Below, in pieces: positions 31,924-33,748 of a stretch of 34,311 nucleotides of DNA (positions within the stretch are counted from its first letter, which is position 1; each line of letters starts with the position of its first letter). The DNA is taken from the NCBI GenBank assembly GCA_028817035.1, contig JAPPQH010000004.1, positions 1-34,311 of the forward strand. The letters run 5' to 3'. A model generated the notes under the pieces. It was not told the origin of the DNA and did not search any database. It saw nothing but the letters and a program-made list of their open reading frames with translations. A program made the position numbers and the translations under genes. The DNA comes from Candidatus Campbellbacteria bacterium. Its GTDB lineage: Bacteria > Patescibacteriota > Minisyncoccia > Phycocordibacterales > JABAAK01.

Positions 31924-33117
31924 ATGTGGTTCAAAAAGACAAAGGCAAAATCAATTTCATCTGAAAAAATCAAGGAAATACTTTCCAGAGGGGTAGAAGA
32001 AGTTATTGATAAAAAATTCATAGAAAGTTCGCTAAAGGACGGGAAAAAGTTGCGTATAAAGCTTGGCATAGATCCAACATCTGACTCACTTCATTTGGGC
32101 TCTCTTGTGCTCCTTATGAAACTCCGTGATTTTGAGGAGGCAGGACACACGCCAGTCGTCATAATAGGCGACTTCACGGCTCGCATAGGGGACACATCAG
32201 ACAAAGATTCAGAGCGCCCATCCCTTGAGAAAAAGTTGGTTGAGAAAAATATGAAGAATTATGCGACCCAAATAAAACGCATATTAAAATCGTCTGAGGT
32301 TGAGATCTTATACAATTCAAATTGGCTTAACAATCTTAAATACGAAGAAGTGATATCACACGCCGGCATGTTTTCTGTGTCCGACTTTATAGCAAGAGAT
32401 AATATAGCACGGCGACTCAAAGCAGGGAATAGAGTTTCATTAAAAGAAGTTCTTTACCCTCTTATGCAAGGGTATGACAGTTTGGTTGTGAATGCAGATG
32501 TTGAGTTGGGTGGAACAGATCAAAGGTTTAATATAATTGCAGGACGAACAATACAAAAAAACAACAACAAAAAACCACAATCAGTTGTTTTGACACCAAT
32601 ACTGTCTGGACTGGACGGCAAAAAGATGAGTAAAAGTTTTGGCAATACCATATCCCTTGATTCTTCTCCACAGGAAATATATGGAGGAATAATGTCTGTT
32701 AATGATGAATATGTTTTTGAATACTTTAAATTACTCACACGACTACAGCAAAATGTTATTGATAGGTTAAAAAGCAGAACACCCCTTGAAGCAAAAAAAT
32801 CTCTTGCAAAAGAAGTGGTTTCAATCTTGCATGGCGATGAAGAGGCAGAGAAATCTGAAAAGTATTTTGAAGATGTTTTTCAAGAAAAAAAGAATATATC
32901 TGACTATGCAGAAGATATAGAGGTATCATCGGGAAAAAACCTTGTTGAGATTGCAGAAACACTTAATCTCTCAAGAGCAGAGATGAAGCGTTTGGTAAGA
33001 AGTGGCGCAATAAAGACAGAGCGAGGCGACAGCATAAAAGATGAGATATACACACCAAAGGACAATGAAATTATATTGATAGGAAAAAGAAGGATAGTGA
33101 GAGTAAAATATAAATAA
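31924..33117 (+). CDS. tyrS: Tyrosyl-tRNA synthetase
   Basis: TyrRS charges tRNA-Tyr. The 397-residue product has the class I nucleotide-binding motif as HLGS (in DSLHLGSLVLL), the region VIIGDFTARIGDTS and the KMSKS loop in LDGKKMSKSFGN. A C-terminal S4-type RNA-binding domain contains LNLSRAEMKRLVRSGAI. The overall pattern (GIDPTSDSLHLG) fits the TyrRZ type of tyrosyl enzyme and not tryptophanyl-tRNA synthetase. Length and motifs are normal. It has its own promoter. The stop codon lies inside the A-tract that forms the T-tract terminator of the minus-strand RNA candidate. Confidence 0.93.
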   Translation: MWFKKTKAKSISSEKIKEILSRGVEEVIDKKFIESSLKDGKKLRIKLGIDPTSDSLHLGSLVLLMKLRDFEEAGHTPVVIIGDFTARIGDTSDKDSERPSLEKKLVEKNMKNYATQIKRILKSSEVEILYNSNWLNNLKYEEVISHAGMFSVSDFIARDNIARRLKAGNRVSLKEVLYPLMQGYDSLVVNADVELGGTDQRFNIIAGRTIQKNNNKKPQSVVLTPILSGLDGKKMSKSFGNTISLDSSPQEIYGGIMSVNDEYVFEYFKLLTRLQQNVIDRLKSRTPLEAKKSLAKEVVSILHGDEEAEKSEKYFEDVFQEKKNISDYAEDIEVSSGKNLVEIAETLNLSRAEMKRLVRSGAIKTERGDSIKDEIYTPKDNEIILIGKRRIVRVKYK

Positions 33118-33166
33118 AAAAAAAGAGTTTCGCTAAGTGGAGTGTGGAGCAATCCTGCGAAACTCT
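33116..33166 (-). terminator. Rho-independent terminator on the minus strand
   Basis: Read on minus, GAGTTTCGC and GCGAAACTC form a perfect 9-bp stem (10 with the adjoining A-T pair), followed directly by nine T residues. The loop of 23 bases is unusually large. It can terminate both the RNA candidate and read-through from ruvC. Its T-tract covers the tyrS stop codon. Confidence 0.7.
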
Positions 33167-33228
33167 CAAGTGCCCAAGAAAGAAGAATCCAAAAAGAACT
33201 TGGGCAGTCTCTCATTTAGGAGATGAGC
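33116..33228 (-). ncRNA. Unassigned structured small RNA candidate
   Basis: A promoter, three successive hairpins and a terminator fit into the gap between tyrS and ruvC. In minus-strand order the hairpins are as follows. The first is CTCAT/ATGAG (33227-33211) with the loop CTCCTAA. The second is TGCCCAAG/CTTGGGCA (33206-33171, 8 perfect pairs, pyrimidine-rich 20-base loop). The third is the 9-bp terminator stem (33165-33125). The first loop carries a CTCCT sequence. I do not match it to 4.5S, 6S, tmRNA or RNase P RNA. It could instead be the shared 3' untranslated region of tyrS or ruvC, but the dedicated promoter favours a separate RNA. Confidence 0.55.
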
Positions 33229-33234
33229 AATTTT

Positions 33235-33262
33235 ATTGTATCATCTGTTTGAAATTTTGCAA
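33235..33262 (-). promoter_or_regulatory. Promoter of the small RNA candidate
   Basis: On minus, TTGCAA (33262-33257) and TACAAT (33240-33235) are spaced by 16 bases, a good sigma-70-type promoter, located just downstream of the ruvC stop codon. Transcription would begin near 33228. Confidence 0.55.
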
Positions 33263-33271
33263 GGTCTTTTC

Positions 33272-33748
33272 TCAACTTCCTCCTTTGGCGAGTAGCCCAG
33301 AGATAGATACAGCAACTGCATCATATTCATCGTCCTTTTTGCCTTTTGGTAGTGTTGGGATGAGCAGAGAGACCATTTTATAAATTTGCTGTTTCTCTGC
33401 CGAGCCGTCCCCACACACCATGGACTTTATCTCTTTTGGAGTGAATTGTAACACCTTTAATTTTTTATCTTCTGTTGTATAAAGCAGGGCACCCCTTACC
33501 TCAGCAACCTGCATGGCAGTTTTTTTGTTTTTCGCGACAAATAAAAGTTCAATCGCACAAAAATCAGGTTTATACTTTTCTATCAGTTTTTTATAACGGT
33601 CTGTTATCTCCCACAACCTTTTTTCAAAATTATCTTTTGAGTTTGTTTCCGCACACTCAGAATGAATTAACTTGAACTTTCCACCACTTTCTTCGACAAG
33701 CGCGAACCCAGCTCTGTCATATCCAGGATCAACACCAAGAACTATCAT
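33272..33748 (-). CDS. ruvC: Holliday junction resolvase RuvC
   Basis: RuvC cuts Holliday junctions made during recombination. The 158-residue product shows the catalytic acidic residues: Asp in GVDPGYDRAGFA near residue 7, Glu in AIELLFVAKN near 66, and two Asp in KDDEYDAVAVS near 139-144. The family segment KTAMQVAEVRG is present. Its ATG overlaps the yebC stop codon as ATGA, so the genes are translationally coupled. ruvA and ruvB do not follow it here. Length is close to the usual 160-175. Confidence 0.92.
   Translation of the reverse strand: MIVLGVDPGYDRAGFALVEESGGKFKLIHSECAETNSKDNFEKRLWEITDRYKKLIEKYKPDFCAIELLFVAKNKKTAMQVAEVRGALLYTTEDKKLKVLQFTPKEIKSMVCGDGSAEKQQIYKMVSLLIPTLPKGKKDDEYDAVAVSISGLLAKGGS

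What the first reader, a model, noticed from the sequence alone, without database searches (positions are those of the whole stretch)
33116..33228. Compact unassigned small RNA gene between tyrS and ruvC
Within 154 bp a minus-strand TTGCAA-16-TACAAT promoter, three consecutive hairpins (two with perfect 8-9 bp stems) and a nine-T terminator occur in the right order and spacing. The first hairpin loop displays CTCCTAA, a C-rich exposed motif of the kind used by regulatory RNAs to pair with targets. I can match it to no known RNA class.
Basis: partly seen in the sequence, partly recalled or inferred. Interest (0 to 1): 0.7.

Follow-up and report, generated by a model that had tools for sequence, protein, structure and literature searches.

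The report
Orphan small RNA gene beside tyrS
Next to a tRNA-charging gene, this ultra-small uncultured bacterium carries what looks like a short non-coding RNA gene, sitting where nearly all its relatives keep a tiny acidic protein gene; the transcription unit is probably real, but the RNA is unique to this genome and its job is unproven.

Summary
The anatomy is real. A minus-strand promoter (TTGCAA-16-TACAAT, extended TG) lies just after ruvC, followed by two statistically strong hairpins and a T9 intrinsic terminator overlapping the tyrS stop. The ~111-nt product has no closed ORF, no Rfam match and no copy elsewhere. The first hairpin, with the 'CTCCTAA' loop, is not above chance (p=0.18).

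Comparison changes the picture. The window is a Paceibacterota-type (Patescibacteria) genome. In 26 of 26 relatives with convergent ruvC/tyrS and a gap over 100 bp, that gap holds a small acidic microprotein gene, usually behind the same promoter type. Here the promoter is kept, the acidic gene is gone (none in 84% of the genome), and the hairpin RNA stands in its place.

The implied mechanism, C-rich loops masking Shine-Dalgarno sites, is disfavoured: the 16S rRNA of this genome and of 12 relatives has lost the CCUCC anti-SD, only 12 of 165 genes have an SD-like 5-mer, and Hfq was not found.

No homologue was found (297 order genomes, 380 phylum genomes), so covariation could not be tested. 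Best reading: a lineage-specific, independently transcribed non-coding RNA of unknown target. Main rival: a leftover transcription unit after loss of the acidic gene.

The parts
33235..33262 (-). Promoter: TTGCAA (33262-33257), 16-nt spacer, extended TG, TACAAT (33240-33235)
   Evidence: scan; score 13/14, 0/1000 shuffles; the same type of promoter (TTGCAA/T-16/17-TG.TACAA) recurs downstream of ruvC in most relatives with the acidic ORF
33116..33228 (-). Putative non-coding RNA, about 111-113 nt (inferred start at about 33228, end in the T tract)
   Evidence: fold z about -3.4; no Rfam match; no closed ORF of 20 aa or more
33211..33227 (-). Hairpin 1, 5 bp, loop CTCCTAA; not above chance
   Evidence: z -0.94, p 0.18; absent from centroid
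33171..33206 (-). Hairpin 2, 8 bp TGCCCAAG/CTTGGGCA, 20-nt pyrimidine-rich loop
   Evidence: z -3.5, p 0.006
33125..33165 (-). Hairpin 3, terminator stem GAGTTTCGC/GCGAAACTC, 23-nt loop holding two CTCC
   Evidence: z -4.4, p 0.002
33116..33124 (-). T9 tract of the intrinsic terminator; overlaps the tyrS stop codon (33115-33117) by 2 nt
33272..33748 (-). ruvC, gene upstream of the RNA on the same strand
   Evidence: Pfam PF02075
31924..33117 (+). tyrS, convergent neighbour
   Evidence: Pfam PF00579

Best explanation
A lineage-specific gene for a small non-coding RNA of about 111 nt. RNA polymerase starts at about 33228 from an extended -10 promoter that is ancestral to this slot after ruvC, makes an RNA dominated by two stable stem-loops with long unpaired pyrimidine-rich loops, and stops at the T9 intrinsic terminator at the end of tyrS. 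In relatives this promoter type drives a small acidic protein; in this genome the protein gene has been lost and the promoter now makes the structured RNA. If it acts, the most likely way is base pairing of the open U/C-rich loops with purine-rich stretches of other RNAs (or with the tyrS 3' end, to which it is antisense), without Hfq and not by masking Shine-Dalgarno sites. Shown: sequence elements, structure above chance, promoter type conserved in position, no ORF, no homologue found, acidic gene absent from the slot. Inferred: transcription, its start and end, the ancestral state, and any regulatory action.
For: Promoter and terminator in order with no gene between; whole-RNA z about -3.4 and two hairpins individually significant; promoter of the same type after ruvC in most relatives, where it precedes a gene, so it is very likely a working promoter; 26 of 26 convergent ruvC/tyrS loci with gap over 100 bp hold an acidic ORF there while the window has none, nor does 84% of its genome (the filter recovers 22 of 24 known cases); no Rfam family; Hfq not detected.
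Against: No expression data. No homologue in 297 order genomes (covariance model, best other E 0.08), 380 phylum genomes or the family, so there is no evidence of selection on the RNA itself. Loop-to-leader pairing energies against 165 gene starts are no better than shuffled loops, except for a marginal top-5 value for loop 1.
Confidence: 0.5

Rival explanations
1. Relic transcription unit: the acidic microprotein gene was deleted in this lineage, leaving its promoter and a terminator. The short transcript is made but has no function beyond ending transcription between the two convergent genes.
For: The slot carries an acidic gene in 26 of 26 comparable loci and none here; same-family genomes G002, G003 and G007 have neither acidic ORF nor tyrS after ruvC, so the slot is being eroded in this family; the RNA has no homologue.
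Against: Hairpin 2 (p 0.006) is not needed for termination; the promoter is still near consensus in a small genome; the terminator differs from the short-loop bidirectional hairpins of relatives.
Confidence: 0.32
2. Convergent overlap element: the stems serve mainly as 3' structures of tyrS and/or ruvC mRNA, and the minus-strand RNA is a cis-antisense partner of the tyrS 3' UTR.
For: The plus strand folds equally well (z -3.8); no plus-strand terminator is found in the gap, so the tyrS mRNA probably runs through it; the T9 overlaps the tyrS stop.
Against: T9 and the promoter point to the minus strand; relatives separate the two genes with a compact bidirectional terminator.
Confidence: 0.12
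3. Firmicutes-type sRNA that blocks Shine-Dalgarno sites with repeated CUCC loops, like LhrC of Listeria.
For: CUCC occurs in loop 1 and twice in the terminator loop; LhrC carries CUCCC in two loops and a linker and pairs with the SD region of lapB (PMC4132741).
Against: No UCCC; hairpin 1 is not above chance; SD-like 5-mers before only 12 of 165 genes (3.5 expected); 16S 3' ends of this genome and 12 relatives lack CCUCC.
Confidence: 0.04
4. Cryptic small protein gene read from ATG 33215 (minus strand).
For: An ATG frame is open from 33215.
Against: The frame has no stop before the terminator and runs 103 codons into antisense tyrS; not acidic like the gene of relatives; no Pfam match.
Confidence: 0.02

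Closest known systems
LhrC family sRNAs of Listeria (and RsaE, SprD, FsrA as cited in PMC4132741)
   Same: Stand-alone sRNA with intrinsic terminator and CU-rich loops, including the terminator loop
   Different: Those have UCCC motifs and pair with SD regions in SD-using bacteria; here no UCCC, anti-SD lost, SD-like motifs rare, one copy, no homologues
Acidic microprotein gene in the ruvC-tyrS gap of relatives (no name found)
   Same: Same genomic slot and same type of promoter
   Different: Encodes a roughly 30-100 aa protein, usually 35-60% Asp/Glu; here no ORF, a structured RNA instead
6S RNA (RF00013)
   Same: Short stand-alone structured transcript
   Different: Not a long interrupted double-stranded rod; no Rfam match here and no 6S match in the genome

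Membership tests
Any Rfam 15 family | Covariance-model score at or above the gathering threshold | tested here: not met
   only chance snoRNA matches far below threshold
Stand-alone bacterial sRNA gene | Own promoter | tested here: met
   13/14 score, promoter type conserved in position in relatives (sequence evidence only)
Stand-alone bacterial sRNA gene | Intrinsic terminator | tested here: met
   9-bp stem plus T9 (the scan missed it because it allows loops of 3-8 only)
Stand-alone bacterial sRNA gene | No coding potential | tested here: met
Stand-alone bacterial sRNA gene | Conserved structure (covariation) in relatives | tested here: inconclusive
   No homologue found and no same-genus genome held
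Stand-alone bacterial sRNA gene | Discrete transcript seen | not testable with these tools
   No RNA data
SD-blocking CU-rich sRNA (LhrC/RsaE type) | Unpaired UCCC motif | tested here: not met
   Sequence has CUCCU, CUCCA, CUCCA only
SD-blocking CU-rich sRNA (LhrC/RsaE type) | Host uses SD/anti-SD | tested here: not met
   anti-SD lost, SD-like motifs rare
Hfq-dependent sRNA | Hfq in genome | tested here: not met
   no PF17209 match; genome 97% complete
6S RNA | RF00013 match | tested here: not met

The most novel reading that the evidence does not exclude
A protein gene was replaced by an RNA gene under the same conserved promoter: the ancestral acidic microprotein of the ruvC-tyrS slot has been supplanted in this lineage by a structured regulatory RNA that took over its regulation, and perhaps its role.
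Probability: 0.12. Interest if true: 0.6.

Novelty: new member of a known kind. Interest (0 to 1): 0.3.

Why it matters
I found no paper on small RNAs of the Patescibacteria in the open-access library with the terms tried. A promoter-backed candidate in a genome without detectable Hfq and without an anti-SD would have to work by a route other than the textbook one. The slot itself, a conserved promoter that serves an acidic microprotein in relatives and an RNA here, is a testable case of gene turnover under a fixed promoter. The RNA alone, being an orphan, is of modest interest.

Tried and rejected
Rfam at gathering and relaxed thresholds: nothing. BLASTN in 60 relatives: one 27-base hit in G009, outside the ruvC-tyrS gap of that genome, limited to the terminator arm and T tract; rejected. 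Family-wide BLASTN at E up to 10: only short chance matches. A covariance model from the single sequence in 297 order genomes: no hit but itself below E 0.07, others of varied length at unrelated places; rejected as chance. Phylum-wide BLASTN: only itself. Genome-collection scan with RuvC alone found nothing; with a TyrS alignment it gave named Paceibacterota, Kaiserbacteria, Yonathbacteria and Zambryskibacteria loci, six with convergent ruvC, all with the acidic ORF and none with the RNA. Arms-only pattern of hairpin 2 in viral contigs: 98 stretches; the two 8-bp arms alone are too unspecific, not followed up. Target prediction by duplex energy: no convincing enrichment. Coding rival rejected.

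Full report
WHAT IS THERE. The finding lies in a 154-bp gap (33118-33271) between convergent tyrS (plus strand, PF00579) and ruvC (minus strand, PF02075), with yebC upstream of ruvC and a class A penicillin-binding protein gene beyond tyrS. On the minus strand there is TTGCAA (33262-33257), a 16-nt spacer, an extended TG and TACAAT (33240-33235); then, from an inferred start at 33228, three hairpins and T9 (33124-33116), which overlaps the tyrS stop codon by two bases. The fold energy is -32.7 kcal/mol, z about -3.4. Tested singly, hairpins 2 and 3 exceed dinucleotide shuffles (p 0.006, 0.002); hairpin 1, which displays CTCCTAA, does not (p 0.18) and is missing from the centroid. The plus strand folds as well (z -3.8), so folding alone does not choose the strand; promoter and T tract do.

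HOW UNUSUAL IN ITS GENOME. A search of 475 kb of the 566-kb genome for a strong promoter followed 60-300 nt later by a hairpin with a T tract, mostly outside genes, gave 8 places, of which two (in L302 and L311) have the same length, promoter, terminator and ORF; the window site ties for the best promoter score. So the pattern is uncommon, not unique.

KNOWN RNA? No Rfam 15 family matches at gathering or relaxed threshold; 6S is not found in the genome. No copy exists elsewhere: BLASTN in 60 relatives, in the family and in 380 phylum genomes, and a covariance model in 297 genomes of the order, return only the window, apart from one rejected 27-base terminator match. No same-genus genome is held; the RuvC of same-family genomes is 38-47% identical to that of the window. 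Covariation is therefore untestable here.

WHAT RELATIVES HAVE IN THE SAME PLACE. In many members of the order ruvC and tyrS are convergent too. I read every fetched locus of that kind with a gap over 100 bp: 20 from order genomes and 6 from named Paceibacterota, Kaiserbacteria, Yonathbacteria, Zambryskibacteria and Parcubacteria records (some species may occur in both collections). All 26 carry, on the ruvC strand, a short very acidic ORF (roughly 30-100 aa, usually 35-60% D/E). The examples printed with their downstream sequence mostly show a compact palindromic terminator before tyrS. The region before the acidic ORF usually holds a promoter of one type, TTGCAA or TTGCAT, 16-17 nt, TG.TACAA, the type found in the window. 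Three order relatives with almost no gap lack the ORF (L006, L073, L079), as do the same-family genomes G002, G003 and G007, in which ruvC is followed by the penicillin-binding protein gene. The acidic proteins tested have no Pfam family.

So the window promoter is very probably genuine and ancestral. What it now drives is different: no acidic ORF in the gap, and none by a filter that recovers 22 of 24 known examples in 84% of the genome. The hairpin RNA occupies the slot.

C-rich loops are used by several low-GC Gram-positive sRNAs to cover Shine-Dalgarno sequences; LhrC has three CUCCC sites, two of them in loops (PMC4132741). Here this is unlikely. The 3' end of the 16S rRNA reads ...GTGGAACATATCC instead of the usual ...GGATCACCTCC (the latter from general knowledge), and 12 relatives show the same loss. 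An SD-like 5-mer precedes 12 of 165 crudely called genes against 3.5 expected, so SD use is residual (start sites were not curated). Hfq is not detected. Pairing energies of the three loops with gene starts do not beat shuffled loops, apart from a marginal top-5 value for loop 1.

VERDICT. A real transcription unit (my estimate 0.8 that it is transcribed, inferred from the promoter), almost certainly non-coding, lineage-specific. Whether the RNA is a regulator or the residue of a lost microprotein gene is open; I put the functional RNA reading at 0.5 and the relic reading at about one third. It is an orphan candidate of a known kind (stand-alone sRNA gene), with modest interest; the conserved acidic microprotein slot and the order-wide loss of the anti-SD are the more general observations.

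Noticed in passing
L007, L009, L011-L015, L017, L064, L068-L070, L074-L076, L078, L080, L081, L083, L085, L091-L094, L096, L098: gap between ruvC and tyrS: A conserved small, extremely acidic protein gene (about 30-100 aa, usually 35-60% Asp/Glu), usually behind a TTGCAA/T...TG.TACAA promoter, sits downstream of ruvC across the order; no Pfam family for the five tested.
   Followed up: partly
L090 (G000 16S rRNA 3' end); L279-L290: The 16S rRNA 3' end of this genome and 12 relatives lacks GGATCACCTCC (reads e.g. GGAACATATCC, GGAATAATTCAA): the anti-Shine-Dalgarno is lost. In the same 13 genomes no protein reaches the NCBIfam cut-off for Era, which is reported to bind exactly this GAUCA...CCUCC stretch (PMC10582724).
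   Followed up: partly
L302:17335-17560 (+) and L311:7237-7462 (-): Two apparently identical short promoter-terminator units of 225 nt on different contigs, each with a 39-aa ORF (MSEKAIPADVSRIF...): a repeated small element.
   Followed up: no
L175:9755-9862 (+), L177:14307-14565 (+), L179:3536-3604 (+): Other promoter-hairpin-terminator units in gene-free stretches of the same genome, without an Rfam match; further orphan RNA candidates.
   Followed up: no
window 31924-33117: The window TyrS resembles other families of the order (36-47% identity) more than the TyrS of its own family (about 31%), which is encoded elsewhere and not beside ruvC: a replaced or differently inherited tyrS.
   Followed up: no
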